NCBI RefSeq assembly: GCF_000426725.1
Contig: NZ_KE384561.1
Location: 475,092 to 539,091, forward strand
Length of the DNA stretch: 64,000 nt
DNA from: Sporocytophaga myxococcoides DSM 11118
GTDB lineage: Bacteria; Bacteroidota; Bacteroidia; Cytophagales; Cytophagaceae
Direction: 5' to 3'
The translations under genes and the position numbers were made by a program. Below, piece after piece: positions 3,191-33,700 of this stretch. The notes under the pieces are model-generated. The model saw only the letters and a program-made list of their open reading frames with translations. It ran no database searches and had not been told where the DNA came from. The stretch's first letter is position 1, and every line of letters begins with the position of its first letter.

Positions 3191-4117
3191 TTATTGATTA
3201 CGACCGTAAGGATTTGGAACAATCGTTTCGGCTCTGGAAACAGCAGATGTACAGAAAAACCCTACTGCCGCTTTATCCTGAGATGTCGTATTAACGATAT
3301 TGGTTGGAACATTTGCTGGCGGTGGAGAAAATAAAGCTCCTATTGGTCCACCGTTCCCTTGAGTAGACTGAGTTACTACTGCTTGTAAAAATGTTGCAGC
3401 TTCCTCAGTTATAGAAAACAATTCTACACCAAACTGCTGGCCATCCAACCATTGATCATCTTCCTCACCTCCGTTATCGTTAACAGGGAATACTCTTAAC
3501 GGATAAATGAACATTGATCCATCCGCTTCAGCAGTTGCGAAAATCTTTCCGTCATAGGAGATCCCAATTCTTTCCGCATCTGTTATTCTTACTCCATTCT
3601 TATAATTTCTGATCCACACCTGGTCCCCTGTACCTACCTGATCTGTAGCCTGGAATTCTGCAAAGTATTTACCTGGAATAATATTTTCGTTAAGATCTTC
3701 AAGAGGTTCAAACAAGATTGAATCTATTGGAGGAACTCTTTTCATTAATGAATAAGCTGTATAAGCCTGACCCTGATAATCTATAAACAATCTGTAAGGA
3801 TGACCGATAATCAGCATTGAATCACCTCTGACAGGTGAAACATACAGCCCGGGACCAGATTCTGCGAATACATATTCCTGTTGTGTTGTTTCATCCACTA
3901 CCTTAACTGATGCTCCGCTTATTCTTATTGGGCCAGAGTTATCAAAATAATATTGAGTACTTGAAAGGTATACAGTCTGTTTTTCGGGCAGATTGGTAAT
4001 AAAAGCATCCACTACTAAAGCAGGTTTACCAGCCTTAAGCGTACTGCTGATATCCACCTTATCCTCACATGCTACAAGCCCTATAAGTAATAAGAATAAT
4101 AAAACTTTATTTTTCAT
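3191..4117 (-). CDS. DUF4249 lipoprotein paired with a TonB receptor
   Basis: A 308-residue protein with a lipoprotein signal ending LLIGLVAC (Cys17). The N-terminal region after the Cys (KPALVVDAFITNLPEKQTV) and the overall length match the DUF4249 family of Bacteroidota, which is typically encoded next to a TonB-dependent receptor. It starts five bases after the receptor's stop codon, so the two are co-transcribed and probably work together at the outer membrane. The mature protein is rich in beta strand and acidic patches; no catalytic motif is visible. Ligand unknown: unlike SusD pairs, DUF4249 pairs have no established substrate class. The family call is firm. Confidence 0.85.
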   Translation of the reverse strand: MKNKVLLFLLLIGLVACEDKVDISSTLKAGKPALVVDAFITNLPEKQTVYLSSTQYYFDNSGPIRISGASVKVVDETTQQEYVFAESGPGLYVSPVRGDSMLIIGHPYRLFIDYQGQAYTAYSLMKRVPPIDSILFEPLEDLNENIIPGKYFAEFQATDQVGTGDQVWIRNYKNGVRITDAERIGISYDGKIFATAEADGSMFIYPLRVFPVNDNGGEEDDQWLDGQQFGVELFSITEEAATFLQAVVTQSTQGNGGPIGALFSPPPANVPTNIVNTTSQDKAAVGFFCTSAVSRAETIVPNPYGRNQ

Positions 4118-4122
4118 TATGT

Positions 4123-6495
4123 TTAAAATTTAAAGTTGTATGTAATTGCAGGAACAAATGATCCGAAAATTGAGAATCGTAAAGCTTCACTTATTTGTTG
4201 ATTTTCAGGATTTTGTCTCGGCGTTATTGCAAATGCATTTCTACGTGAATAAAGGTTATAAACTGTAAATACCAAATCCCAGCTGTATCTGCCAAATATT
4301 TTAGACTTGCGAACTTTTTCTTTGCTTTTTAAAGTTGCGGCTACATCCAGACGATGATAGGCTGGCAATCTATAATTGTTTCTTGGACCTCCGGGATTAT
4401 ATGGTACAAATATACCCTGGAACTCAAACTTATCCGTAGCAAAAGTAAATGGAGTACCTGAAGCATAAACAAATGTACTGCTCAAACTCACACGTTTGGA
4501 AAGTTCATATATCCCAACAACACTTAGATTATGTCTTCTGTCATATCTGTTTGGATACCAGTCTCCCTGATTGATACCGGGCACCTTTCTTTCAGACTTC
4601 GAGAGCGTATAGCTAATCCATCCATTGAATCTTCCTTCTCTCTTCTTCACAAACAATTCCAGACCATAAGCTCTGGCAGTTCCCGGAATAACTTCTCCTT
4701 CAAGATTCGGATTAAAGAACAGATTTGCGCCATCTATATAATCCAATTGATTTAACATGTCCTTATAAAAGACTTCTGCAGAAGTTTCTATATTTTGTTT
4801 AGGACCAATATTTCTGAAATAGCCCAGTGAATATTGATCACACAATTGAGGCTTTATGTTATTTGTACTTGGCAAATAAACATCCAGAGGAATTGATGCA
4901 GTAGTATTGGATATCAAGTGAATGTACTGAACCATTCTGTTATAGCTGGCTTTAAGAGATGAGTTTTCACTAAGTGAATAATTAGCTGCTATTCTTGGTT
5001 CAGGCTTGGCATAAGCTTTAATCGTTTTTCTGCTTCCGAATTCTTCAATACCTACAGGATTTCTAACATAGTTACCTGCTGTTGAATCATAATAATATGC
5101 TGTTCCAGACCCAAGGTAGTTGAAGAAGGAATATCTCAGACCATATTGAAGTGTAAGCCTTGCTGTCAATTTCTGTTCATTGGAAATATATAAAGCATTT
5201 TCCATCGCATATTTATCCGGAAGTCCTATGTCTCTTCTCTCCCCTCCGGAATAAAATACTCCTGTGCTGGGTACAAACTTGTAATACGTAGCCTGGGCTC
5301 CCAGACTTATAGTATTATTACTGTTTAAATACCATGTAAATTCAGGCTTTGCACAATAGTTAATTATTTTAGCTGTCCACTTGAAAGAGTCTTCAGTCAT
5401 ATCTTCGCCAAACTCAAGGCGATAGCTATAACTGCTATAATCTCCGATCATATTAAGGAGTAGTTTGTCGCTGAATACGTGGTTCCAACGTAAAGTCGTT
5501 GTGGCATTTCCCCAACCGAAGTAAGCACCTGGGAATGCAAACACATCTCTTCCATAATATCCGGAAAGATAAACACGATTTCTGTTATTGATATTATAGT
5601 TTGCTTTTAGAGTCAGGTCATAAAAATAAAGCTTAGCATCTTCAAATGCCTTGGCAAGGAAAGGTCTTGCCAGAACGTCTGCGTATGATCTTCTGCCTGC
5701 AACAATAAAAGATAGTTTATTTTTTTTGATAGGACCTCCAACTGTGAGTCGGCTAAAGATGGTACTAATACCACCTTGAACTCCGATTTTATCAGGATTA
5801 CCTTCTTTCATTTTCACGTCAAGAACGGATGATAAACGGCCACCATATTGAGCAGGTATCGCTGCTTTAGAAAGCTTGAGATCTTTTACCATGTCCGGAT
5901 TGAATACAGAGAAGAATCCAAACATGTGAGAGGAATTGTATATCGGAGCATCATCAAGCAAGATCAGGTTTTGATCTACAGCTCCCCCTCTGACATTAAA
6001 TCCGGATGCGCCTTCCCCGACCGTCGATACTCCAGGCAAAAGCTGAATGCTTCTTATCACATCTACCTCACCTAGAAGAGGCGGAATAGCATTTATTTGT
6101 TTCATGTCCAGCTTCTGAGTTCCCATCTCAAGGTTCTTAACCTGGGCATCTGGCCTTTCACCGGTAACAACAACCTCATTCAACATTTGCTCTCGCATGC
6201 TGAATGACATTTTAGTATTCCCTTTAACAACAATAGTTTGGGAAGCTTTACCAAATCCGACAAAATTGATTTCTACTGTATACTTTCCTGGAGGTACTTT
6301 TAAGGAAAAATCGCCATTGATATCTGTAGCAGTACCTGCATTGATTTCCTTGACTGTTACTACTGCGCCAATCATTGGCTCTCCATTGGCAGAGTCCTTG
6401 ACAGAGCCACTAAGCGTATATGTTTCTTGTCCATAGCTTAAATTCAAAGAAGCAAAAAACAAAACTATTACACTAAAAATAAATCTTGTTACCAT
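4123..6495 (-). CDS. TonB-dependent receptor with carboxypeptidase-like N-domain
   Basis: A 790-residue outer-membrane receptor. Signal peptide about 1-22, then a carboxypeptidase D regulatory-like beta-sandwich (about 24-105, with the typical GAVVTVKEINAGTATDING), a plug domain (about 130-235, IQLLPGVSTVGEGASGFNVRGG) and a 22-stranded barrel ending in Phe (ITYNFKF). This architecture imports nutrients through the outer membrane using TonB energy. It is first in a two-gene operon with the DUF4249 lipoprotein. No iron or carbohydrate genes adjoin it, so the substrate cannot be assigned. No truncation or frameshift seen. Confidence 0.9.
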   Translation of the reverse strand: MVTRFIFSVIVLFFASLNLSYGQETYTLSGSVKDSANGEPMIGAVVTVKEINAGTATDINGDFSLKVPPGKYTVEINFVGFGKASQTIVVKGNTKMSFSMREQMLNEVVVTGERPDAQVKNLEMGTQKLDMKQINAIPPLLGEVDVIRSIQLLPGVSTVGEGASGFNVRGGAVDQNLILLDDAPIYNSSHMFGFFSVFNPDMVKDLKLSKAAIPAQYGGRLSSVLDVKMKEGNPDKIGVQGGISTIFSRLTVGGPIKKNKLSFIVAGRRSYADVLARPFLAKAFEDAKLYFYDLTLKANYNINNRNRVYLSGYYGRDVFAFPGAYFGWGNATTTLRWNHVFSDKLLLNMIGDYSSYSYRLEFGEDMTEDSFKWTAKIINYCAKPEFTWYLNSNNTISLGAQATYYKFVPSTGVFYSGGERRDIGLPDKYAMENALYISNEQKLTARLTLQYGLRYSFFNYLGSGTAYYYDSTAGNYVRNPVGIEEFGSRKTIKAYAKPEPRIAANYSLSENSSLKASYNRMVQYIHLISNTTASIPLDVYLPSTNNIKPQLCDQYSLGYFRNIGPKQNIETSAEVFYKDMLNQLDYIDGANLFFNPNLEGEVIPGTARAYGLELFVKKREGRFNGWISYTLSKSERKVPGINQGDWYPNRYDRRHNLSVVGIYELSKRVSLSSTFVYASGTPFTFATDKFEFQGIFVPYNPGGPRNNYRLPAYHRLDVAATLKSKEKVRKSKIFGRYSWDLVFTVYNLYSRRNAFAITPRQNPENQQISEALRFSIFGSFVPAITYNFKF

Positions 6496-6887: not shown

Positions 6888-7763
6888 TCAATTGGCTATC
6901 CTATATTGAAGGCCAAGTTCATAAGAACCTGTAGTAAGAAGGCGGTTACTTAAGAATAGGCTATTAAAGGAAAAATTTAAAATTATTGGATTATTGGATT
7001 GGTTAAGATATAGAGATGCTAAAAATGAGGTACCTCTCTGATACTGATACATCCCGCCAAAAGCAATCGTTTCTTTATAACAAAGTAATATCGCGGCATT
7101 TCCTAAATCTATATACGGTTGCGGTCTATAGAATAAATGAGCTCTTACAGTTAAATACTCACTCACATCCTTTTCCGATTGAAAATAGAACTGATAAAAT
7201 CGTTTAAATAATAACGGGCTATTAATAGCTGTAATGCTGTTGTTTAAGAGCTGGTAAGAGGCCGCTCCGATTTCTGTCTTCCTGTATTTTAGAATTAAAC
7301 CAGCATTTGCATCGGGAGCACTGGCCTTTCCCATTCCTGAAGGAGCTGTAAAGCTGATGGAAGCTACACCAAATGCGAGCCCTGCAGACAAAAAGAGGTC
7401 TTCTCTGAGAGGTATCTTGATTGCATAGTTGCCATAAAACTTGGGAGATGATATATATGGTCCCTCTTTTTCATTCTGAAACAATACTCTTGCAACCTGT
7501 CCTGTATTACCCTTTGGGTTTAGCAGAACATCCCCATATGCAGTGATAGTAGCTACTTCATTAAAAAGACCAGATCTTGATTTATACAAACTATTTAATG
7601 TCGCCCTTTTATCATCGGCAGTCCAGGCAGGATTAATCAATGCTAAATGATCTAGTGCAGTTGAAGAGTAATAATCAGGCAAATAAAAGTTCTGGGTCTG
7701 TTGGGAGTAGCAGACGATGGTTATGTTAAAAATAAAAAGAAAGGATGAAAGTAATTTCCTCAA
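6888..7763 (-). CDS. PorP/SprF-family type IX secretion outer-membrane protein
   Basis: A 291-residue protein when read from the TTG at 7763, which gives a good signal peptide (RKLLSSFLFIFNITIVCYSQ) with cleavage before QTQNF. The mature start, with YYSSTALDHLALINPAWT, is the hallmark 'NPA' region of PorP/SprF proteins, followed by a small beta-barrel (KIPLREDLFLSAGLAFG). In gliding Bacteroidota, SprF-type proteins are needed to export cargo with type B C-terminal domains and sit in or near the outer membrane. No ATG lies in frame upstream or near the signal peptide; a longer reading to 7982 would overlap the sigma gene and bury the signal peptide. A promoter match just upstream supports TTG. 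The gene is divergent from the sigma/anti-sigma/LRR operon, whose product carries a type B signal. Confidence 0.8.
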   Translation of the reverse strand: MRKLLSSFLFIFNITIVCYSQQTQNFYLPDYYSSTALDHLALINPAWTADDKRATLNSLYKSRSGLFNEVATITAYGDVLLNPKGNTGQVARVLFQNEKEGPYISSPKFYGNYAIKIPLREDLFLSAGLAFGVASISFTAPSGMGKASAPDANAGLILKYRKTEIGAASYQLLNNSITAINSPLLFKRFYQFYFQSEKDVSEYLTVRAHLFYRPQPYIDLGNAAILLCYKETIAFGGMYQYQRGTSFLASLYLNQSNNPIILNFSFNSLFLSNRLLTTGSYELGLQYRIAN

Positions 7764-7785
7764 TGAGACTAAAGTGAAATTCAGA

Positions 7786-7814
7786 CAAATATAATAGAAA
7801 ATCCTATCCTGCAA
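7786..7814 (-). promoter_or_regulatory. Bacteroidota-type promoter of the PorP/SprF-like gene
   Basis: On the minus strand TATATTTG (7786-7793) fits the -7 consensus TAnnTTTG, with TTG (7812-7814) 18 bases upstream as the -33 element. Transcription would start near 7779, giving a leader of about 15 bases before the TTG start codon at 7763. Confidence 0.6.
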
Positions 7815-7975
7815 TCCTAAATTATAATTCCAAAATACAATTTTGGAATAGTCTTTAACGGTAAAAAAATCGTAAAGAGTAATCCCGGAGATGATAAAAA
7901 AATTTTTAAAAAATTTCTTAAAAATTCCATTACTATTAAGATTCCGGCGTGTCTTCAGTTTAGATTTTGACGAGT

Positions 7976-8560
7976 ATGGCAATTGTTGAAAAGGATATTC
8001 CTGACTTAATTAAACAAGGGAAAGATAAAGAGGTGATCTCTTTATTTTACAAATTGGTGTATCCCAGGGTAAAAAAGACAATTTTAAACCGGGGAGGCAA
8101 GAAGGAAGATGTTGAAGATGTATTTCAGGATGCTGTCATGTACTTATATAAACACATCCTTGAAGATAAATATAATGGTAAGTATACTGTTTACGGATTT
8201 CTATTTACGCTTTGCATCAACAGATGGATTAATAGCCTGAGAAAGAGTAACAAATCGATTAGTGTAGATTTTCAATCTGAAGAGAATATTTATAACATAG
8301 TAGTTGATTTTCAGGAAATATATCCGGCAGCAAAGGAAGAGAATCTTCTTTCCCAATTATTCTCCAAAATCGGTAGTAAGTGCATTGAAATTTTAAACTA
8401 CACCATATACCAAAATCTGATGATGGAAGATATTCAGTTGAGGATGGGACTGGAATCTGAGGGAGCAGCTAAGATGGCTCTTAAAAGATGTAGAGAAAAA
8501 TTATATAAAGAAATTGAAAATAATCCCCTTATAATTCAAAAATTAAAAGGTCATGTATAG
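7976..8560 (+). CDS. ECF-type RNA polymerase sigma factor
   Basis: A 194-residue sigma-70 family protein. Region 2 is visible at about 25-95 (EDVEDVFQDAVMYLYKHI and the promoter-melting stretch FLFTLCINRWINSLRKS), then a linker and a region 4 helix-turn-helix at about 125-180 (MMEDIQLRMGL, AAKMALKRCREKLY). It lacks regions 1 and 3, as ECF factors do. I chose the ATG at 7976 over an in-frame TTG three codons earlier. It overlaps the next gene by eight bases and leads a three-gene operon with its probable anti-sigma factor, so it most likely drives genes in response to a signal at the periplasm or outer membrane. Targets unknown; the divergent PorP-like gene and its own operon are candidates. 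Confidence 0.88.
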   Translation: MAIVEKDIPDLIKQGKDKEVISLFYKLVYPRVKKTILNRGGKKEDVEDVFQDAVMYLYKHILEDKYNGKYTVYGFLFTLCINRWINSLRKSNKSISVDFQSEENIYNIVVDFQEIYPAAKEENLLSQLFSKIGSKCIEILNYTIYQNLMMEDIQLRMGLESEGAAKMALKRCREKLYKEIENNPLIIQKLKGHV

Positions 8561-9665
8561 CAGTAGTGATGAAAACATATATGAGGTAATTGAGCTATAC
8601 CTTTCAGAAATACTTCCTGAAAATGAAAGAATGTTGTTTGAGGAACAACTTATATCCGATATTGCTCTTCAACATAAAGTAGAAGTTTGTAAAACTGCCA
8701 GGGATCTCATTCTTCAGAATAAACTTAAAGGTCTGAAATCAATAATGGCCGAAGAGCAAAGTAAAGCTGACCAAAGCGGTCCCTTCAATAAAGGCTGGAC
8801 ATTCCTGATACTATTGGCAGTGATTAGTTCTGGCTTCTATTTTCTGTTAAAAAACAATTCATCATCCGAAATTGAAAAATCAGAACGTATTAAAAGTATT
8901 ATTACTTCAACCGATAGTGCTTCTAATGTTCAGCTGTCCGGAAGTGAAGTAAAAATTACGAACACAAAACTACATTCAGGAAAAACTATAACAGCTGATA
9001 AAAAAACTACTAATGAACCCACTACAGCTAAAATAGATGCTTCTTCAATCTCCCCTGATATTGATGGTCAGGAATTACAATCAAAGGACAAGACTTTAAA
9101 GCCTGATAACACTTACAATTTAATAGCAGAACCTAAAAATAACCTTCTAACACCTCCGGCGAATAAATGTGAAGGTGTTGTTATCTCTGCTCAATTACTT
9201 GTTCAGGAACCTTGCAATGGCAGCAGCACTGGAGTTATTGAAATTAAAGGGTTTAAAGGTGGTACTTCCCCTTACAAAACATTCCTTAATGGTTCAGAAT
9301 CAGAGGAAGAAAATATTTTCAGAGATTTAAATCAAGGGACCTACAGAGTAGACGTTACTGACGATAACGGTTGTAAACATCAATTTAATCCCTTAATTTT
9401 AAAAGGAATAGTCTGTAAACTTGATTATGATTTTAATCCTGGACGAGGCGAAGAATGGCTTGGCCCAGTCGCTATGCAGACTTCAAAACTGACTATCATT
9501 GACAAAACAGGCAATCAGGTTTATTCCAAACAAATGGCAAATGGTGAGCAATGTACATGGTCAGGATATTTGGAGTCAGGAAAACTTGAACTGGGGTATT
9601 TTATTTATATTATTGAAAATAAGGACGGGAATGTTATCAAGGGAAGTATTACAGTAACAGAATGA
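8553..9665 (+). CDS. Membrane anti-sigma factor with SprB-like repeat and T9SS-CTD-like periplasmic end
   Basis: A 370-residue protein in three parts. Residues 1-78 are a soluble, helical, acidic domain (IELYLSEILPENERMLFEEQL) like the cytoplasmic sigma-binding part of Bacteroidota anti-sigma factors. One membrane helix follows at about 82-100. The rest is periplasmic: a Ser/Thr/Lys-rich linker, an SprB-like repeat at about 206-280 (GTSPYKTFLNG, YRVDVTDDNGC) and a terminal beta-sandwich at about 285-370 (SKLTIIDKTGNQVYSK, WSGYLESGKLELGYFIYII) resembling the gliding-motility-associated type B T9SS domain. The usual NGDG loop of that domain is missing (FNPGRGEEW instead). There is no signal peptide, so the end domain cannot be an ordinary export signal. 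It overlaps the sigma gene by eight bases and the next gene by four (ATGA). Anti-sigma role is inferred from position and topology. Confidence 0.72.
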   Translation: MYSSSDENIYEVIELYLSEILPENERMLFEEQLISDIALQHKVEVCKTARDLILQNKLKGLKSIMAEEQSKADQSGPFNKGWTFLILLAVISSGFYFLLKNNSSSEIEKSERIKSIITSTDSASNVQLSGSEVKITNTKLHSGKTITADKKTTNEPTTAKIDASSISPDIDGQELQSKDKTLKPDNTYNLIAEPKNNLLTPPANKCEGVVISAQLLVQEPCNGSSTGVIEIKGFKGGTSPYKTFLNGSESEEENIFRDLNQGTYRVDVTDDNGCKHQFNPLILKGIVCKLDYDFNPGRGEEWLGPVAMQTSKLTIIDKTGNQVYSKQMANGEQCTWSGYLESGKLELGYFIYIIENKDGNVIKGSITVTE

Positions 9666-11263
9666 GTTTCATTAAATACATAGCGGCAATCTATATCTGT
9701 GCTATGTCTGCATTTGCAGCAAGAGCGCAGGTTACACCAATTGCAGACAATGCTTTCAGAAAGTGTATTGCTGATAGTATTCCCACTGCTCTTGACGCTA
9801 ATCAGAATTTAATTTTGGCACAAGCTCCGACTATTAAAAAGCTGGAGTGCCCGAATTACGGTATTGCTACGATCGATGAGTTAAAATATTTTACAGGACT
9901 GACAGAACTTAATATCACTAAGAATCCTATCATAACTCTGCCAGATATATCTGCTATTAAAGGATTGACGAAATTGAATATTGGAGAAACCAAATTGACT
10001 GTAATACCGGATTTATCGCCATTCACTAATCTTCAATACCTTTCCATTCACCGTTTAGAATTGGCCAAATTCCCCGATCTCACTAATAATAAAAACCTTA
10101 TTCAGTTATTGGTTCATACGAACAAGTTTGATAATATACCTGCTTTAAACTTACCAAAGCTGGAAGATTTAGGAATTTCTTTGGTTGGAATTACTGCTCT
10201 ACCTGACTTGTCAAATCTACCTAAATTAAGAAAACTGGAATGCTTTAGAAATCAAATAAAACAATTGCCGGATCTATCTGGAATGGATAGCTTGAAAATT
10301 CTTGACGCAAGTTCTAACTTGATTGATAAGTTCCCGGCTTTACCAAAAGGTATCCAAACTGTGTATCTGGATAGTAACCTGATTTCAGAATTACCTTTAT
10401 TAACTTCTTATCAATCGCTTACCAAAGTAAGATTGTATAAGAACTACCTGAACTTTCAAAATTTGATGCCATTAACAGCGTTTCTCAATTACAATTCATT
10501 GTTTGAATTATCGCCTCAGAAAATCTTCAAAGTCGGTACAAGTGAGACTGTAGTGGAGCTTGAAAAGTTTTCGTTAAATTCAAAAATAGATTCGAACACT
10601 TCAGGAGTCTCAAGAAAGTGGTTCTTTAATAATAATCTAACTGCGCAAACATCCAGAATATTCAGCATAGATAAAACAAGCCTTTCTAACAAGGGCTATT
10701 ATTATTGTGAAGTGACGCATCCTACATTCCCAAATCTTACACTAAGGACAGATGCCTTTAATGTTGACGTTCTTCCATGTGTAAATATAAGTGGAATAAT
10801 CTATGACATTACAGGAAGCACTTGTGTAAAGCAAGGAGCTGTAAATATAAGTTTGACCAATCAACCAGGTCATAACTACAAATTTGACATAGAAGGATTG
10901 CAGACACATACTAAGTATTCTTCAGCATCTGGTCAATTCATAAATCTCGAAGATTTGGAATATAAGCTTACTGTGTCATCATCCAATGGTTGTTCCTATA
11001 CAATACCTCAAACTATTGAGATTCCAAGAGAGAACTGTAAACAACTTGTTCTGACTCCGAATGGAGATGGAGTAGATGATAATTATTATTTTTCTCAAAC
11101 TGGTAATGCTAAAGTTGTTGATAAATTTGGCAACACCATTTGCCAGTTAACTCTTCCAAAACTATGGGATGGTTATGTAAATGACCACAGAGTACCAGCA
11201 GGTTACTATCTTATCAATATCAATAGTGGAGAAGAAGTTTTAAAAATGTCAGTGATATATTAA
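9662..11263 (+). CDS. Secreted leucine-rich-repeat protein with type B T9SS signal
   Basis: A 533-residue exported protein. Signal peptide 1-22 (ending AARAQ), then about eight leucine-rich repeats of 20-23 residues from about 75 to 265 (LTELNITKNPIITLPDIS, LKILDASSNLIDKFPALP), an Ig-like domain with paired cysteines (YYYCEVTHP), an SprB-like stretch (VSSSNGCSYTI) and a type B C-terminal domain from about 461 (LTPNGDGVDDNYYF to WDGYVNDHRVPAGYYLINI). Proteins with this ending are exported by T9SS with help from SprF-like proteins. It is translationally coupled (ATGA) to the anti-sigma gene, so it is probably the surface partner of that signalling module: a ligand-binding receptor, or a reporter of secretion status. 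LRR ligand unknown. Confidence 0.8.
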   Translation: MSFIKYIAAIYICAMSAFAARAQVTPIADNAFRKCIADSIPTALDANQNLILAQAPTIKKLECPNYGIATIDELKYFTGLTELNITKNPIITLPDISAIKGLTKLNIGETKLTVIPDLSPFTNLQYLSIHRLELAKFPDLTNNKNLIQLLVHTNKFDNIPALNLPKLEDLGISLVGITALPDLSNLPKLRKLECFRNQIKQLPDLSGMDSLKILDASSNLIDKFPALPKGIQTVYLDSNLISELPLLTSYQSLTKVRLYKNYLNFQNLMPLTAFLNYNSLFELSPQKIFKVGTSETVVELEKFSLNSKIDSNTSGVSRKWFFNNNLTAQTSRIFSIDKTSLSNKGYYYCEVTHPTFPNLTLRTDAFNVDVLPCVNISGIIYDITGSTCVKQGAVNISLTNQPGHNYKFDIEGLQTHTKYSSASGQFINLEDLEYKLTVSSSNGCSYTIPQTIEIPRENCKQLVLTPNGDGVDDNYYFSQTGNAKVVDKFGNTICQLTLPKLWDGYVNDHRVPAGYYLININSGEEVLKMSVIY

Positions 11264-12038: not shown

Positions 12039-13211
12039 ATGAAAAAGCTAACCTATTGTCTAATCATGGCTCTTGGCGTTATTTTTCTTTCATGTAAATC
12101 GCAAAAAGAAGAAGTAAAACGCAACAATGATGTTTCAGATGAAATCATATCTAAACTTCAAGCTGCAGGTTTTGTAACCAGTGAAGGTCTTCGCAAATAC
12201 GAAGACGGGTATATAGTAGAAGACGATATATATTTAACCGAAAGCCAGATCGATGAGCTTGTTGCACAAAACCAAGAGTCGTTGACTAATGGAAGAACTG
12301 ACCATTACGCATCAAGTTCTCAGGTAACCCGGCTACCCCGAACAATACAAGTATACATGGATGTAACATTCGGAACTTTTATGCAAAATGCATTTGATGC
12401 GGCATTAGCAAGATATAATGCGGTAAACATGAGTTTAAGGTTTACCAGATCCAGTAACATATCGACAGCAGATATAAGAATAATGTCTTTCTATGAAGTT
12501 AGTTCACTCCTTGGAATCAGTGCAGGATTTCCTTCAGGTGGAAATCCTGCTAATCTTATCAGACTCAATACATACTATTTCAACAACTCTACTGCAAGAG
12601 CTGACGCCTCTACAGTTATAGCGCATGAGATAGGACATGCAGTGGGCTTCCGACATACAGATTTTATGAACAGAGCTTTCAGCTGCGGCGCGAGTAATGG
12701 TGGCAATGAGGGTGATGCAGGAGTCGGTGCAGTGCATATCCCAGGAACTCCCACTGCACCGTCATCAGGGTCTTGGATGCTTGCATGCTCAAACGGATCT
12801 GACAGACCATTCACAACACAAGACAGAGTTTCTCTTTTAACTTTGTATCCTCAGACTTTTACAACCAATACATACAGAATGTTCGGAGGAGCGCAACTAT
12901 TGCAAGGTCAGTCATTGAGATCCATAGATTCTCGTTTTACTTTAACAATGCAAACAGATGGGAACCTTGTCCTATATGATAATTTAAACCGTGCATTATG
13001 GCATACTAATACAGCAGGAAGACCTTATATCACTCGCTGCATTATGCAAAATGACGGTAATCTTGTCCTGTATGATAACAGTTTAGTCCCTTATTGGGCA
13101 ACCAATACCCATATGTATCCGGGATCTTATCTAAGACTTCAGGATGACGGTAATCTTGTGATCTATCAAGGTACAACTGCACGGTGGGCATCTAACACAT
13201 GCTGCAGATAA
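12039..13211 (+). CDS. Lipoprotein: HEIGH zinc metallopeptidase (M57-like) fused to a bulb-type lectin
   Basis: A 390-residue protein with a lipoprotein signal (IFLSC, Cys19). Residues about 100-275 form a metallopeptidase domain with HEIGHAVGFRH at 196-206, giving zinc ligands H196, H200 and H206 and catalytic E197; this fits the 'dual-action HEIGH' family (M57). The C-terminal 110 residues hold three bulb-lectin repeats (MQTDGNLVLYDN, MQNDGNLVLYDN, LQDDGNLVIYQG), each carrying the QxDxNxVxY mannose-binding pattern, two with Met or Leu before it. The lectin would tether the protease to mannose-rich glycans, perhaps of prey, plant or host matrix. It stands alone between two gene-free stretches and ends in a strong terminator. 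The lipid anchor suggests surface or outer-membrane display rather than release. Substrate unknown. Confidence 0.85.
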   Translation: MKKLTYCLIMALGVIFLSCKSQKEEVKRNNDVSDEIISKLQAAGFVTSEGLRKYEDGYIVEDDIYLTESQIDELVAQNQESLTNGRTDHYASSSQVTRLPRTIQVYMDVTFGTFMQNAFDAALARYNAVNMSLRFTRSSNISTADIRIMSFYEVSSLLGISAGFPSGGNPANLIRLNTYYFNNSTARADASTVIAHEIGHAVGFRHTDFMNRAFSCGASNGGNEGDAGVGAVHIPGTPTAPSSGSWMLACSNGSDRPFTTQDRVSLLTLYPQTFTTNTYRMFGGAQLLQGQSLRSIDSRFTLTMQTDGNLVLYDNLNRALWHTNTAGRPYITRCIMQNDGNLVLYDNSLVPYWATNTHMYPGSYLRLQDDGNLVIYQGTTARWASNTCCR

Positions 13212-24784: not shown

Positions 24785-27700
24785 TTATTTCATTATAGTC
24801 ATTTTCTTGCTGATCATTTTACCATTACTTATAATATTTACAGCATAAAATCCTGCTCCCAGCTCCATAGCCTCCACATTAATCTTATCCTCAGAGCTAC
24901 TGAACTCTCTTACTTTATTGCCTTTGGCATCTATAATCTGGATAGTAACGGACTGAGCTTGATTCATAGAAACAGCAAACGAACCATTATTCGGATTGGG
25001 GTAGATTTCGATTCCCTCTTCCTCCAACCTATGAATATTGGAAACAGAAGACGGACCGTCAATACCAAATTGCTGAGCTACCAAACTTTTTGGTGCGCAT
25101 GGAGCAGGTTGTACATTTACTTTAGTAAAATCCTTTGCTTCACAACCTGAAACTGTTTTTTTCACTACTAAGGAATAGGTCGTAGTTTGTAAGGGTGTTA
25201 CACTTAAGTCTGGTCCTGACTGAAGACCGGCCGGTGAACTCCAGAAATATGTTGCATTGGCAGAAGGATACATAAATGTCCATGTTGGTCCGTTTATTGT
25301 GCCATTAATCCCATTTCCGGATTTGTCTTTGGCTACGCTTCCCGAACCTTCATGCATTTGAAGATAAAGCTTTAGCCCCAGAGTACCTGCTTCTATTGTA
25401 TGATACATCCCGTCTTTAATCTCTGCCTCAGTTCTCATTGTATTCCATATTCTGAATTCATCAATATTTCCATTTAGAAAAAAGCTGTTATTAATAAAAC
25501 TTCCTATTCTCAAATTCGAAAGTAAGATGTTATTTCCATCTGATGTATTAGCTGAAGCAACAAGCTTACCATTAATATATATCCCTTTAAATGTATTTGC
25601 TTTTCCAGATGAAACAAATGCAATGTGAGTCCACCTTCCAAGATATGGTTGATAATCAGCAGTTATTCTACTTGAAGAATTATTAATATTTCCATAATCA
25701 AACACGAGTAATCCATTGGCACCAGGCGTGTGAGCCTGAAGTCTTTCATTATTATCAGAACCCACCGAAAATGCTGACCTAGTCCTTCCATTTGCAGGAT
25801 CCACATTCAGCCAGAACTCCACGGTAATCGCTCCGCCATTTGCAGGATTGGAAAAAGAAGGTACTGTCACTTTATCGTCAACTCCATCAAAACTTAAGAC
25901 TTTTCCTCCGGTTAAATTTATGGTCTCACCTGGACAAATATTCGTCGAAGAAAATGAACTGACAGCTCTTGCTCCTTCTTTTACTACCACAGTTGCATCA
26001 TCATAAACAACAGGATTTGAACTTTGCACCCTAATTTTATAACTGCCATTTAGAATTAAATCCCTGGGCAATTCTGCACGCATTTGAGCACTACCTGAAT
26101 TGGAGTATGGAAAACTATTTAAAATAACAGGATTAGTAAAACTTCCGGAAGCATCTGAAAGCATTAACGTAAAGGTATTACCTGGATAATAAAATCCTTC
26201 CATAATAATTGGCACATATATTTCTCCAGTACAGATAGTGCTTCCTTCTGCTAAATCTACTGTGACGCTTGGGGCCTTTACAGTTATATTCTCTGGATTT
26301 TGGGTACCGATAATGTTAGGATTTGCTGATACTACACGTACTCTGTAATCAGATCCTATAGGCGTATTTATGGGTATGGTAGCATTAATTGTTCCTATCT
26401 GGGTGCTACTTCCTATAATTTGATAATTTGCAAAACTACCTTTAACATCCGATAACTGGACATTAAAAATGGTACCTGCAGGAAAACTTATATTAGTTTT
26501 AAAGCTTACCTGAATACTTTCGCCTCTGTAATATGATACCGGATTTACACTATTGGTATATATTCCGTCCTTAACATTTACTTTAGTAGTATATTGCCCA
26601 ACACATCCTGTGGTATTATCTGTAACTGTTGAAACGAAGTTCCCCGTATAGTCAGGACTTGCAGTTACATTTGGTCCAGATGTCGGGTTAGTTGCAGGCA
26701 TCCAGTTATATGTCATATTTGTAGATGGAGAAGTCCACTCAGCTCCATATACAGTTCCATTCAAGCCTTTTCCGGATTTGTCTTTTATCTCAGGACCTTT
26801 TCCTTCGTGCATCTGAAGATATAACTGTAGACCGGCAGTATTTTCATCTATAAATTTAATCATACCAACCTGAATTTCTTCGGCCGTTCTCATTACATTC
26901 CAGACTCTGAATTCGTCAATCATTCCTTTTACAAAAAGAGTGTTGTTGACAAAACATCCAATTTTCAAACCACTGAGTGCCATTGCATTTCCATCCGAAG
27001 TGTTTTCAGACTTTACCAGTTTTCCATTAAGATAAATTCCCTTAAAGGTATTGGCCTTCCCTGATGAAACAAGAGCCACGTGAGTCCACTTATCCAGATA
27101 TGGATTATAATCTACATTAATCCGACTTGCTGGATTATTTAAATTCCCATAATCAAATGTAAGTATTCCGTCATTATATGGTGCATGCACCTGAAGCCTG
27201 TCATACTCATCAGTCCCAACTGAGAATGTAGAACTTTTTCTAAGGTCTGCGGCATTTACCTTTAGCCAGAACTCAACTGTTATGGGGCCTCCATTGGCAG
27301 GTTTTGAATAACCAGGTACAGAAACATAGTCATTTATACCATCAAAACTCAACACACTTCCACTTCTAATATCTATGGTTTCATTCAAATTGATATTGGT
27401 GGAAGAAAATGAATTAATAGCTCTTGGGGTCTCTTTTATAGTAACGTTTACATCACTTTCAAGATACGGACTGGAACTTTCAACCCTTATTTTATAACCA
27501 GATCCTGCTAGTATATACTTTGGAATAGTAACATTGATCATCCATGAACCAGAACTTGGAAAACTATTCATTTCCAAAATATAGGGATCGTCAAAATTTC
27601 CTGTTGCGTCTGAGAGTAAAACAGTAAATATATTGTCAGGATTAAAATTACCTGTTGTCGTAAACGGTATAGCTATTGCACCAGGGCATATAACAGTTTG

Positions 27701-30700
27701 TGTCAGATCTACAGTTAATGATGATTGATTAATCGTTATATTCTCAGGATTTGACAAACCTGTCACCGCCGGATTAATTGATACCACCCTTACCCGATAT
27801 AAACTTCCAGAAGGCACATCCATTGGGATTAATGCATTAACAGGGCCTGGCTGCGAACTACTGCCAATAACTCTCGGATTTACAAAACTTCCGCTGGCAT
27901 CGGACAGCTCTACATTAAATTTATTACCAGAGGCAAATTGTAGATTAGTCAAATAACTAACCGTCATTGCATCACCGGCATAATATATTGCAGGACTCAC
28001 AGTGTTAGTTAATATGCCAAAGATTGAAATATCTACGCCATTATCATTGCTCACAGTTGCAGGTAAAGATGAAATGATCCTGATTCTATAACCTGAGCCC
28101 ATTGGAACTGCCAATGGAATCTGAACATTAATAGAGCCACTTGTTGATGATATTACAGATCCGAGAGTTACAGGCCTCAGGAAGCTACCCTGAGCATCCG
28201 ACAACTGCACTGTAAATTTATTTGTAGCACTAAAAATACCATTTACAGTATAGGGAACAGATATAGTTGAGCCTGAAAGTATTCTATTGGTTGATAAAGA
28301 ACCTAATGTTACTATCGGGAACCCAACAATAATATCTTTGGTATTTACCGTACCATCAATAGCAGGATTGCTTGAAACTACTTTAATCCGATAAGTAGCT
28401 CCTGGAACTGTCGATATTGGAATTACTGCATTAATCTGTCCTGAAATTTTTCCAGAAAGTGTTCCAATGTTTACTGTATTTGCAGTAAAGCTTCCGGTAA
28501 CATCAGACAATATTGCTGTGAAAGTATTTCCGGAATTGAAAGTACCAAGCGCCGTGAAAGGCACCATAACAGGATCTCCCGGATAATAAACTTTATCGAT
28601 TATGGTTTCAGTAAATAAACGCCCTACCGAAATATTAACTCCATTATCGCTGCCATTAATAAGCGGATTTGAGCCCACAACCCTGATTCTGTATCCGCGA
28701 CCTACAGGAGTGTTAGCAGGTATAGTTGCGCTGATGGTTCCTGCATTTGTTGAAGTAAGCGTACCTATGTTTACAGAATTTACAAAATATCCATTGGCAT
28801 CAGAAAGCTGCGCTGTAAACACATTGCCACTCTTGAATACTCCCAATATGCTGTATGGAACAGAAAGTGTTGCTCCAGGCATATAAGCCAGTGGAGATAT
28901 AGTTCCGGTTGTGATCTGAGAGGGTTTTATGGTAATATATTGTCCGTTATCGGCAGATGTTGTCTGTGTAACAGAAGATATAACCCTTATTTTATAGCCA
29001 GTTCCAGGTATAGCATCGGCAGGAATAGTACCATTGATTGTACCTGAGGTCGCTCCTGATGTACCTATGTTTACAGGCATGCTTGCAGGATTGGTAAAAC
29101 TTCCGTTCTGGTCTGATAACTGAGCAGTAAATGTCTCACCCGGCTTGGTGCATGAAGCATTAAACGGAATAGCAACTACAGCAGAAGGAAAGTAAGCGGT
29201 TGGATTTATATTTCCCAAGGTCATGGATCCCGAATTTTGACCACTACCAACTTTTAGTATCCAAATATCAGAGCCACCACGACCTGCTTCAGATTTATCT
29301 CCGCCTCTAGGAGAACTAGAAGCCCCCGCCATCAAAAAATCATCATCATTAACCACGGCCAGGTTCCCGAGCCTATCACCTGATGTACCTCTAATAGTTT
29401 TATCCCAAAGAATATTACCTAATTTGTCTGTTTTAAGAAACCAGTAGTCTTCACCTCCATACGAAGGCTCCGATTTAGCCCCACTCTTAGGAGAGCCGGA
29501 GCTTCCTCCAATCAAAAGATTTCCATTGGGGAATTCCTTTACGGAATAGAAACGATCTCCACCACTACCACCATATTCTTTTTTCCATATTAGAGTTCCA
29601 TTAGGATCTACTTTTAGTAAAGCATAATTTTCATTATTAATTGTTCCTATAATATAGTTGCCATCGGAAGTCATTATCATTGAAGCTATCCCGCTACCTC
29701 CATAAGAACCAGAACTTGCCGCATAGGTATAGGTCCATAATTTTTTTCCAGCAGCATCGATTTTTGTTAATCTTATCAAACCAGGTGTAATGCCCGATGC
29801 ATTTTGCACACTTTCACTGGCAATTAAATATCCTCCATCAGCGCTTGCACAAAGCGAGTGTATAGATTCATTCATGTCCAAATTCCCAATAGTCTTATCC
29901 CAAATTTTGTTGCCCGTTCCATCAATCTTTAAAATCCATAAATCATAATTTGGAAAATAATAGTTCCAGGAATTGGTACTGACATAGCCTTCGGACTTGT
30001 CACCTCCAGCAGGAGAATTTGAATGACTCCCAATTATAAAACCTCCATCGCCGGACGGAATAATTGACCCTGGATGCTCAGAATTAATGTTGCCATACTT
30101 TTTCCCCCATATTTGCACACCGGACTTGCTTATTTTAGTAACATAAGTATCATAACCTGATAAAACATTATTGAAAGCGCTACCAGAATTTGGATACCAT
30201 CTCCTGCCCAGAAGGACGTATCCGTCTGAAACCTCCACAAGATCCCGAAATTCATATGATTCTTCAAAAACATTAAATTTCTTATCCCAAACTTTATTGC
30301 CACAGGCATCCAGTTTTACAATCCACATGGTACTTAATCCTCCCACCAGGCTTGTACCAGATCCTGAAGAATGATTCTCTGAAACATCAAATCCTGCATT
30401 AGACTTTGTTGTCGCCCCCAAGATATAACCACCATCTGTTGTAGGATATATTTTCACGTCAGACTCATCAACACTACCACCGTATGTTTTGTCCCATGCT
30501 ATAGGAATATTGGTATAAGCGCTTGAGTTATTGCTAGTACCAAGATTCGGTGTTGTTGCATTTTTTGCATATACTCGGTAATAATAAGTAACTCCAAGTG
30601 AAGCAGAATTATCTGTAAAGGATGTTATATTCTCTCCTACCGTTGCTATTGCAACAAAACCCGATGTCGCATCTGTAGATCTTTCAACTACAAAGGCCGT

Positions 30701-33700
30701 CTCTGTGGTAGAATTATCAATCCAGGTAAGTTTCACTTCTTTAAATCCACCCACTGTAACAAGCCCGCTCGGAGCTACTGCACTGACATTTACAAGGGCA
30801 GTACCTGTACCCTTGCAGCCTTTGCTGTCTGTAACTGTTAGATTATATAGTAAGCTCGTTCCCATTTGGGGGGCCTGTACATTTGGAGTAAGTATATTGG
30901 CATTTGTAAGATATGTTGATGGAGTCCATACTCCTGTAAAACTTCCCGACCCTCCGGCAACAGGTAAATTCAGCGTCTCGATGCCTCCTTTGCAAGTATT
31001 ATAGGTTTTATTACCCACGGTCACCGGTTGAATGGTAATTTTTACATCATCAGAATTTACACAACCAGAAGTTAAATTCCTGGCATTTACAGTATAGTTA
31101 TATGTTCCTGGTATAACAGTATTAAATTTAGGATTTGATATTGCAGCATTACTTAAATAATTAACTCCGGTGCTTGGGCTGCATGACCACGAATAAGTGG
31201 TATTCGGCTTTGAAGCGCTCCCCAGCTGCAGTTCATTTCCCGGGCAGACGGAAATATCAGGACCGGCATTTGCTCCGGGATAATACAAAGTCACAGTAAT
31301 TGACTTTGAATCCAGCTGAGTAAGACTTTGGCAATCATTATGGGCGAGGCTTATTATAAAGGTATCTGTATAAGGGAATACAGGAAGATTCGTTCCGTTC
31401 TTAAAATCAATCTTATTATTTTTTAATTCACCTGTTTTGGCACCATGTATTTTTATTTCATAAGGACAAGTGTATGAATCGACCTCCACATTAAATTCAG
31501 GATATGCGCCTTTATTCCAGCAGGTAGTTGATAAGGATACATTCCCCAGAACTGCCTTACAGTCTCCGGGTCCCATGCCAGGTACAACTATTACTGCATC
31601 GTTCTTAACTTGTTTTTCCCATATTAAATAGGGCCTTGGTTTATGGTTTTTCACGAACAAGGATGAGCTATATTTGCCTGGTTGCGTGTAAAATACAGTA
31701 TGCGGTCCATAACCGGTTGCAGTTGGTGGACTTGCAAATGTACCTGACCAGGCATCCTTATCAAATTCCCAAGTATATTTCATGTCTGGTGATTCAGGAA
31801 AATAACCGGCATACATAACTGGTACGTTACAGCCTACAGTTATCGGATCGTCTTTTGACGCAGGTTCTCCATTTATTAAATAAGCAGCAGATGAACTTGG
31901 GATATCTGAAATATTCACACAGCCCTTACGAATCTTTGTATCGCAGTTATCCCCATCACAAACCTTTAGAGAAACCGTGTAGGTACCAAAATCGCGGTAA
32001 ACATGACTTCCATGCATTGACGATGATGTCGTACCGTCTCCAAAATCCCAAAGATAACTGGTAAGCGGAAAACTACTTCCGCCGGTACTCTCATCCGAAA
32101 ACGCCACATTGCCACCAGGTCTGATTCCTATCGGAGGGCAACCACTAAACTCTGCTCTTAAAGGAGTTATTCTTGGATCGTTTACGGTTATAAAAGCATT
32201 TTTTATTTCTATAACAGTACCTGTATTATCAGTTACCTGTAGCGAAATATTTTTAATACCTGATGAGCTAAAAGAGACTGTAGGATTTGAAGTTACCAGG
32301 CTTGATGCGTCTGCGTCTGGTCCAAAATTCCAGAGGTAGGCTGGAGAACTTTCATTGCCGGAAACAGTGCTGGTAAATTCAATTTCTTCACCGGGTTGTA
32401 TATATCTCCTAGACGAAGTAAAATCTACCAGCATGGTGCTGCTGGAATTTTGAACATCAATATAGGCTGCCTTTTGTTCTGTAATACAACCTTCATCGTC
32501 GCATACTGTCAGCTTTACCCACTTATTCCCTGTAGATGTATAATAAACTGAAGGAGGTTCTTCTTCATCACTAGTGGCAGGTACAGCGTCTATTCCAAAG
32601 TCCCACTCATACGTCACATCACCAACTCCTCCTGAACTCCCGTTCGTAAAAGTAACTTCTTCGTTGACTAAAGCTTCGGTTTTATCTGCTGAGAAATTTA
32701 CTTCCATACATGTAGATAATGTACGCATCTGAGCACCTGTACGCGCTTGTTGTTGATTGTTGCCGGGACAAGATTCTACTTCAGGTGCAGGGCAATAGGT
32801 ATCTGTTTCCTGAACATTTCCTAAATAGACCCCAAAGTGGCCATGATCAAATGATGTGGAAAATCTTCCGTATACAGAAGTTGCTATTGGTAGGTCATTT
32901 GGAGGATTAGGATTAGGATGAATTCTGGGATCAAAATTAGGGTCAGTTTCACAGAGATCTCCTCCAAAACCTTCCTTGAGAACGCCAACAATTCTCTTAT
33001 TATTATCAAACAAAGCTGAACCGGATGAACCTTCGGCAGTATATCCGGAATTCCAATTGTCAACTTCCCAAAATACAGGAACTCCTGAACCTAACTGACG
33101 ATTATAGAAACTTATCTTTTTTACATCGCCATGCGGATGGTGAATACCAACAAAAGGCGGTTGCGGGCTTGAGGCTCTGGACCATCCAGCATAGCAGACA
33201 TTTTGAGGTGTTGAATTCAAACGCATCAATAAATAATCCCTTTCCCTATCTCCGGATAAACGTCTTGCGCCTGTAATTGAATTTATTGCGTTAACGGAAT
33301 TGGAAATACTATGCCCATCACCGTTGCAATCAGGATCATAGTGATTAAACAATACAACCCATTTAGAGAAATCAAAACAAAGATCGGTCTTATCACTACA
33401 ATCTGCATTTGCATCATCAATATTGTGAAATGCTGTTAAAAAGTATGGTTCTTTGTCATTATTGGAATTGTTAATTAATGTTCCCGTTGCATGACCTACA
33501 TATCTCCCACTGGGCATTTTATATAAAATTAAAGCTACCGCTTTCGCTTCATTTGCATAAGGCAGAGCTTCTGGACAAGAAACATTCTTTATACAAGAAA
33601 CATCTCCATAACTTAACATAGGATTAGGAACAAATGGACCTACCCCCTTTAAAAATTGTAAAACATTGGCAAAGTCATGTATAACTTCGCCGACTACTAC

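What the first reader, a model, noticed from the sequence alone, without database searches (positions are those of the whole stretch)
6888..11263. Candidate new signalling-secretion module: PorP/SprF-like protein, ECF sigma, anti-sigma with T9SS-like end, LRR T9SS cargo
Seen: three overlapping genes (8-bp and ATGA overlaps) encode an ECF sigma factor, a single-pass protein and a secreted LRR protein with an NGDG-type (type B) T9SS ending; a PorP/SprF-like gene is divergent. Known: SprF-like proteins serve export of type B cargo; ECF/anti-sigma pairs relay periplasmic signals. Inference: the LRR protein and PorP-like protein may form a surface sensor whose state is read by the anti-sigma factor, or the sigma factor may monitor T9SS export load. 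I do not know of a described system with this exact set.
Basis: partly seen in the sequence, partly recalled or inferred. Interest (0 to 1): 0.85.

Follow-up and report, generated by a model that had tools for sequence, protein, structure and literature searches.

The report
Self-regulating surface-protein export gene cassette
Sporocytophaga and its relatives carry many copies of a four-gene cassette in which a gene switch appears to control the making of one surface protein, and the switch's membrane-anchored brake ends in a copy of that protein's own export tag, suggesting the cell senses from inside how its outer-membrane export dock is occupied.

Summary
This Sporocytophaga genome holds nine paralogous cassettes: a PorP/SprF-like barrel, usually divergent, beside an ECF sigma, an anti-sigma and a T9SS type-B cargo (usually LRR). 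Of 85 non-redundant Cytophagales cassettes, 82 have PorP adjacent. They occur in 15 of 19 Cytophagaceae genomes, sporadically in other Cytophagales families; no full-length match was seen outside the order.

The anti-sigma is a cytoplasmic sigma-binding domain, one TM helix, a disordered tether of constant length (median 105 aa, IQR 100-110) and unconserved sequence, then a SprB-repeat plus CHU_C tail homologous to the cargo's last 170 aa (hhalign 99.5%, E 4e-23). That tail lacks the PNGDG loop.

An ECF-type promoter (TTAC...[TC]GTA) precedes sigma in most cassettes. In three rearranged architectures the separated cargo, or its operon, has its own copy. For one cassette the motif occurs exactly twice in 6.3 Mb: before sigma and before cargo.

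Best reading: insulated, autoregulated circuits, each dedicated to one T9SS surface protein, with a tethered anti-sigma reading PorP/cargo status through a pseudo-CTD. Docking and the sign of the signal are inferred. No description was found in the held literature.

The parts
6888..7763 (-). short PorP/SprF-like T9SS shuttle, 14-strand outer-membrane barrel (about 291 aa; TTG start)
   Evidence: PF11751 E 3.5e-18; AF2 pLDDT 92.9, nearest solved folds FadL and PorV 8gl6_F
7928..7955 (+). ECF-type promoter of the sigma operon, CATTACTATT-N11-GTGTCTT
   Evidence: conserved in orthologues and family-wide TTAC...GT at a fixed distance; only exact match in the genome
7976..8560 (+). ECF sigma factor (194 aa; ORF extends to a TTG at 7967)
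   Evidence: the ten best hits in the genome are the nine cassettes plus one variant
8553..9665 (+). anti-sigma factor (370 aa), overlaps sigma by 8 bp
   Evidence: gene order, three-helix N-terminal domain with YLxGxLxxxExxxFE motif, TM helix
8553..8789 (+). anti-sigma residues 1-79: cytoplasmic sigma-binding domain
   Evidence: helices 5-17, 23-35, 37-74, mostly high pLDDT
8790..8855 (+). anti-sigma residues 80-101: TM helix
   Evidence: hydropathy maximum
8856..9164 (+). anti-sigma tether, length conserved (median 105 aa), sequence not conserved
   Evidence: disordered, pLDDT below 50 over residues 103-184; 85 sequences
9165..9416 (+). anti-sigma SprB-repeat-like domain
   Evidence: PF13573 sub-threshold in paralogues; homologous to cargo
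9417..9662 (+). anti-sigma CHU_C (type-B CTD) domain without PNGDG loop
   Evidence: PF13585 in every full-length own-genome paralogue; PN(x)D/G in 2 of 85 anti-sigma tails against 48 of 66 cargo tails
9662..11263 (+). secreted LRR + Ig-like + SprB-like + type-B CTD cargo (533 aa)
   Evidence: LRR_4 E 6.3e-15, CHU_C 3.4e-4; TIGR04131 3.2e-5; family alignment

Best explanation
This is a self-contained trans-envelope circuit for one surface protein. SHOWN by sequence: the sigma gene has its own ECF-type promoter, which also precedes the anti-sigma and, in the same operon or through a second copy of the promoter, the cargo. PorP is normally not under that promoter. The anti-sigma is predicted to be anchored in the inner membrane and carries, on a tether of periplasm-spanning length, a copy of the cargo's T9SS tail. 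INFERRED: PorP is the outer-membrane shuttle and anchor for the cargo. The anti-sigma's pseudo-CTD docks on the same PorP, or on the T9SS receptor that sees the cargo, so the anti-sigma reads whether PorP is vacant or occupied by cargo and releases sigma accordingly. I lean 60:40 to 'vacant PorP = sigma on', a quota or refill control that keeps cargo stoichiometric with PorP; the opposite sign is possible. Nine differently tuned copies would run in parallel, one per surface protein.
For: Synteny in 82 of 85 cassettes and nine copies in one genome. Anti-sigma C-terminal 170 aa homologous to cargo C-terminal 170 aa, and every full-length anti-sigma in the genome ends in CHU_C. Constant-length, unconserved, disordered tether. 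Sigma-direction motif in 51 of 65 cassettes against 5.2 +/- 2.1 in dinucleotide shuffles; PorP direction 9 against 6.6 +/- 2.5. In rearranged cassettes the separated cargo has its own copy (0 of 5000 shuffles for each of four loci; four orthologous loci of a second type), or the PorP-cargo operon does (L199/L210). Exactly two genome-wide hits for one cassette's motif, before sigma and before cargo; one each for two other cassettes. PorP distances correlate with anti-sigma CTD, cargo CTD and cargo body distances after removing the sigma distance (partial r 0.54, 0.47, 0.59). Literature: type-B substrates need a cognate PorP/SprF shuttle and are probably stoichiometric with it (PMC12618676); PorP-like proteins hold type-B proteins at the surface (PMC9143113). 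SprA is present.
Against: No binding, expression or mutant data. PorP-CTD docking could not be modelled here (single-chain folding only). A conserved variant operon has an anti-sigma that stops before the CTD (L069, L250), so the CTD is not universal. PorP is a long sequence, which lowers noise and favours its correlations. Cassettes are related, so motif counts are not independent. The missing PNGDG loop leaves it unclear whether the pseudo-CTD can reach PorP's outer face.
Confidence: 0.5

Rival explanations
1. Ligand-triggered cell-surface signalling like FecA-FecR-FecI: the LRR cargo on PorP is a receptor; ligand or contact changes the complex, the docked anti-sigma lets sigma go, and more receptor or adhesin is made.
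For: Cargo bodies are variable recognition-type domains (LRR, RCC1, Ig, laminin-G-like). Receptor, anti-sigma and sigma are co-encoded. TonB-dependent transducers touch their anti-sigma (PMC11637429, title and abstract).
Against: For the three promoters searched, the only clear targets are the cassette's own sigma operon and cargo, so the sensor would mainly turn on itself. No TonB-dependent receptor or FecR-type domain in the cassette.
Confidence: 0.27
2. Export-jam monitor: unexported cargo piling up in the periplasm competes with the homologous anti-sigma tail (for PorP or another T9SS receptor), shutting down or boosting its own synthesis.
For: Anti-sigma tail is a cargo-tail homologue without the PNGDG loop, as expected of a decoy that is not exported (in PMC12618676 each conserved type-B motif was needed for secretion).
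Against: Cannot be separated from occupancy sensing by sequence. No further strong promoter copies were found outside the cassettes, so no sign that T9SS machinery genes are targets, and nine separate monitors would be needed.
Confidence: 0.15
3. The anti-sigma tail is only a fold or stability domain left from gene fusion; signalling is by an unrelated protease or periplasmic cue, and PorP adjacency reflects only cargo-PorP pairing.
For: Variant anti-sigmas without the CTD (L069, L250) or without the SprB repeat (L247-L249) exist.
Against: CTD and SprB repeat are the most conserved parts, more than the TM or tether, the tail is kept in nearly all cassettes, and tether length is held.
Confidence: 0.08

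Closest known systems
[quoted passage not shown] PMC13088901)
   Same: N-terminal anti-sigma domain, one TM helix, long disordered tether, C-terminal outer-membrane-directed module; cognate ECF sigma; Bacteroidota only
   Different: Dma ends in its own beta-barrel. Here the barrel is a separate PorP gene and the anti-sigma ends in a SprB-repeat plus T9SS type-B CTD homologous to the cargo's tail.
Type-B CTD substrate / PorP-SprF shuttle pairs (SprB-SprF, Fjoh_3952-3951; PMC12618676, PMC9143113)
   Same: type-B cargo next to a PorP/SprF-like gene
   Different: adds a dedicated ECF sigma and an anti-sigma carrying a cargo-like tail; PorP is a short divergent subfamily and usually divergently transcribed
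PorA / PorXY-SigP of Porphyromonas gingivalis (PMC7712824)
   Same: a T9SS CTD protein feeds into an ECF sigma
   Different: there a two-component system and one sigma control the T9SS machinery; here sigma and anti-sigma appear to control one cargo each
FecI-FecR-FecA cell-surface signalling (family knowledge; PMC11637429 abstract)
   Same: OM protein, IM anti-sigma, ECF sigma logic
   Different: no TonB-dependent receptor and no FecR periplasmic domain

Membership tests
ECF sigma / anti-sigma pair | ECF sigma (regions 2 and 4) with overlapping downstream single-pass anti-sigma | tested here: met
   gap of -3 bp in 50 of 85
ECF sigma / anti-sigma pair | anti-sigma binds and inhibits its sigma | not testable with these tools
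   needs two-hybrid or pull-down
PorP/SprF family | PF11751 over cut-off, 14-strand barrel | tested here: met
   66.5 bits vs 22.3; but below the NCBIfam TIGR03519 cut-off (55.9 vs 90.55)
T9SS type-B substrate (cargo) | signal peptide plus C-terminal CHU_C / TIGR04131 with PNGDG | tested here: met
   PNGDG present and CHU_C/TIGR04131 matched, though below cut-offs; family alignment; signal peptide judged by eye
T9SS type-B substrate (anti-sigma) | cleavable signal peptide | tested here: not met
   N-terminal 79-aa cytoplasmic domain then TM helix
T9SS type-B substrate (anti-sigma) | complete type-B CTD including PNGDG loop | tested here: not met
   2 of 85
Dma dual membrane-spanning anti-sigma | covalent C-terminal beta-barrel | tested here: not met
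   C-terminus is two small beta domains, not a membrane barrel
Dma dual membrane-spanning anti-sigma | anti-sigma domain, TM, long disordered tether | tested here: met
FecIRA cell-surface signalling | FecR domain and TonB-dependent transducer | tested here: not met
   no FecR match in the anti-sigma; cassette barrel is PorP. A TonB-dependent receptor lies nearby at 4123-6495; no gene of that size lies upstream of PorP in L102, and L101 is cut short there

The most novel reading that the evidence does not exclude
A new class of trans-envelope sensor: an inner-membrane anti-sigma factor that is a T9SS pseudo-substrate. Its cargo-like tail is tethered across the periplasm (possibly threaded through SprA) onto the PorP shuttle, so the cell counts vacant or filled surface docks and makes exactly the cognate adhesin; one genome runs nine such circuits in parallel.
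Probability: 0.42. Interest if true: 0.88.

Novelty: new variant of a known kind. Interest (0 to 1): 0.74.

Why it matters
It would give a first dedicated feedback control for individual T9SS surface proteins. It would help explain why one genome carries some 30 PorP/SprF paralogues, and make the open question of how type-B cargo and shuttle stay matched directly testable in Cytophaga hutchinsonii, whose genome (G014, 4,433,218 bp; identification from memory) has five full-length cassettes. It also offers nine naturally distinct, apparently insulated sigma/promoter pairs.

Tried and rejected
Chance co-location: rejected by synteny in 85 cassettes. A general T9SS-load sigma: the promoter motifs of three cassettes have no further strong copies in the genome. 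PorP as a sigma target: no motif enrichment in its direction, except L199/L210. Structure-based identification of the anti-sigma tail in the PDB gave only generic Ig-like folds, GhpA and PorZ. Two genome pattern searches used a wrong spacer; they returned only background and were repeated correctly. The C. hutchinsonii sigma study (PMC6384103) and the original Dma paper (PMC10927553) are not held.
Full report
OBSERVATION. Domain searches confirm a PorP/SprF-like protein (PF11751 E 3.5e-18), an ECF sigma (Sigma70_r2 E 3.8e-7; TIGR02937 E 1.6e-14), an anti-sigma ending in a CHU_C-like domain (E 1.5e-4) and an LRR protein with a type-B CTD (LRR_4 E 6.3e-15; CHU_C E 3.4e-4). Both CHU_C matches in the window are under Pfam's cut-off, but several paralogous anti-sigmas pass it. 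The overlaps (8 bp; ATGA) are correct. The probable PorP start is a TTG at 7763, leaving a 212-bp divergent intergenic region. The host is a Sporocytophaga: the closest public hits are Sporocytophaga MAGs, sigma 96% identical.

THE MODULE IS A FAMILY. In the window's own genome, searches with sigma and anti-sigma find nine cassettes with the same parts. The ten best sigma hits are these nine plus one variant locus on C4; the other ECF sigmas score lower. PorP/SprF paralogues number 30; the nine cassette PorPs belong to the short, divergent group. Relatives fetched around anti-sigma hits show the same order. Of 85 non-redundant cassettes, 77 have PorP divergent, 5 same-strand, 1 is cut by a contig edge and 2 lack it. 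Sigma and anti-sigma overlap or abut in nearly all, 66 have the cargo directly downstream, and most of the rest have it beside PorP or cut by a contig end. By genomes: 15 of 19 Cytophagaceae including this one, a few in other Cytophagales families, and no full-length match among the phylum-wide sample outside the order. The phylum search scored only six candidates per genome, so rare distant cassettes could be missed.

THE ANTI-SIGMA. AF2 (28-sequence alignment) gives a three-helix N-terminal domain, a TM helix at 80-101, a disordered stretch 103-184 and two confident beta domains from about 205 to the end. Across 85 sequences the tether from TM end to the first conserved Cys is 105 aa (median; IQR 100-110; 5-95% 93-119), although its sequence is the least conserved part (17% mean majority residue), rich in K, S, T, E, N and P and without Cys. 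Constant length with free sequence suggests a physical span. The two C-terminal domains are the most conserved parts. Profile comparison aligns them over their whole length to the last 170 residues of the cargo (probability 99.5, E 4e-23). In F. johnsoniae the minimal type-B export region is up to 235 aa (PMC12618676), so the shared part lies within it. The anti-sigma tails lack the PN(x)D/G loop (2 of 85) that cargo tails usually have (48 of 66). Mutating any of five conserved motifs blocked secretion of a type-B CTD in F. johnsoniae; that one of these is the PNGDG loop is my inference, since the figure is not held. If so, the anti-sigma tail looks like a docking decoy rather than an export signal.

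PROMOTER AND TARGETS. Anchored on a conserved sigma residue, TTAC occurs at 95-135 of a 200-bp upstream window in 61 of 71 cassettes against 12.4 +/- 3.1 in dinucleotide shuffles. The full two-part motif (TTAC, then [TCG]GT[ACT] 16-19 bp on) is in 51 of 65 against 5.2 +/- 2.1, but in the PorP direction only 9 against 6.6 +/- 2.5. This is an ECF-like promoter feeding sigma, anti-sigma and usually cargo. The rearranged cassettes are the natural experiment. In the L061 type (own genome C2:95k; L195, L205, L234) the cargo is moved beyond PorP and carries TTTACTTTTT-N9-10-TTTGTA; none of 5000 shuffles of each region contains it. In L061, L195 and L234 the sigma promoter of the same cassette has the matching motif. 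In the own genome that motif occurs exactly twice, before sigma and before the cargo. In the L063 type (four species) the cargo follows PorP and has GGGTTACAAT...ACTGTA just after the PorP stop, like the sigma promoter GGGTTACAATT...TTTGTA. In L199/L210 the PorP-cargo operon carries the promoter too. So the promoter follows the cargo. The window's own motif has no other exact match; inexact matches are no more frequent than the control. Cassettes are phylogenetically related, so these counts are not independent trials.

CO-INHERITANCE. Pairwise distances of sigma, anti-sigma parts, PorP and cargo parts correlate strongly (r 0.67-0.88), as expected if cassettes move as units. After removing the sigma distance, the strongest remaining correlations involve PorP (with cargo body 0.59, anti-sigma CTD 0.54, anti-sigma SprB repeat 0.50, cargo CTD 0.47). 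This fits PorP as the common partner but is not proof; sequence length affects such values.

PorP. AF2 gives a 14-strand barrel, pLDDT 92.9, closest by fold to FadL-family transporters, with a chain of a T9SS substrate complex that I take to be PorV also among the top matches (8gl6_F). SprA is present in the genome.

VARIANTS. In L247-L249 sigma and anti-sigma head a linear operon with a canonical type-B cargo, a canonical PorP and a TPR/PD40 (PorE-like) gene; there the anti-sigma has the CTD but no SprB repeat. In two Sporocytophaga genomes (L069, L250) a similar operon has an RCC1 cargo and an anti-sigma that stops just before the CTD. Sigma/anti-sigma thus associates repeatedly with type-B cargo and PorP, but the anti-sigma tail can be reduced.

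MECHANISM. Shown: composition, synteny, tail homology, and the promoter motif with its placement. Inferred: sigma/anti-sigma binding, use of the promoter by the cognate sigma, docking of the tail on PorP or another CTD receptor, and the sign of the signal. I favour occupancy sensing because the promoter follows the cargo but usually not PorP, and because type-B substrate and shuttle appear to be needed in stoichiometric amounts (PMC12618676). The rivals are ligand sensing and export-jam sensing.

NOVELTY. No paper in the held library was found that describes this set; many subscription papers are not held. The nearest architecture is the Dma family (PMC13088901), which has its barrel fused on. 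I file it as a new variant of trans-envelope ECF/anti-sigma regulation, not as a member of Dma or FecIRA, since defining features of both were tested and not met.

Noticed in passing
L069:3208-9626 and L250:6038-11001; L247-L249: Second arrangement: linear operon sigma, anti-sigma, type-B cargo (RCC1 or DUF2341/SprB), canonical PorP, then a PD40-type gene (PorE-like with TPR in L248); anti-sigma tail reduced in different ways.
   Followed up: partly
L071:6571-8020; L109, L110: A simpler sigma/anti-sigma pair without CTD beside an ftsX-like gene, found in several Cytophagales; possible relative or ancestor of the cassette regulators.
   Followed up: no
L061:4830-7067; also L195, L234 (similar-sized gene in L205): A secreted protein with GH30, CBM6 and a type-A T9SS tail (domains tested in L061) lies just downstream of the anti-sigma in the C2:95k cassette type; possible functional link to polysaccharide use.
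   Followed up: no
window 12039-13211: Lipoprotein-like M57 metallopeptidase with B_lectin domain next to the cassette; a similar-sized gene lies there in one near relative (L100) but not another (L099).
   Followed up: partly
window 3191-6495: TonB-dependent receptor with carboxypeptidase-regulatory domain plus DUF4249 lipoprotein-like gene pair upstream.
   Followed up: no
window 24785-34228: Giant 3147-aa secreted protein with a type-A-like T9SS ending (judged by eye).
   Followed up: no
L236, L237, L182, L215, L191: Broken or split cassette genes (anti-sigma, PorP or cargo in two ORFs): decay or assembly error, suggesting turnover of cassettes.
   Followed up: no
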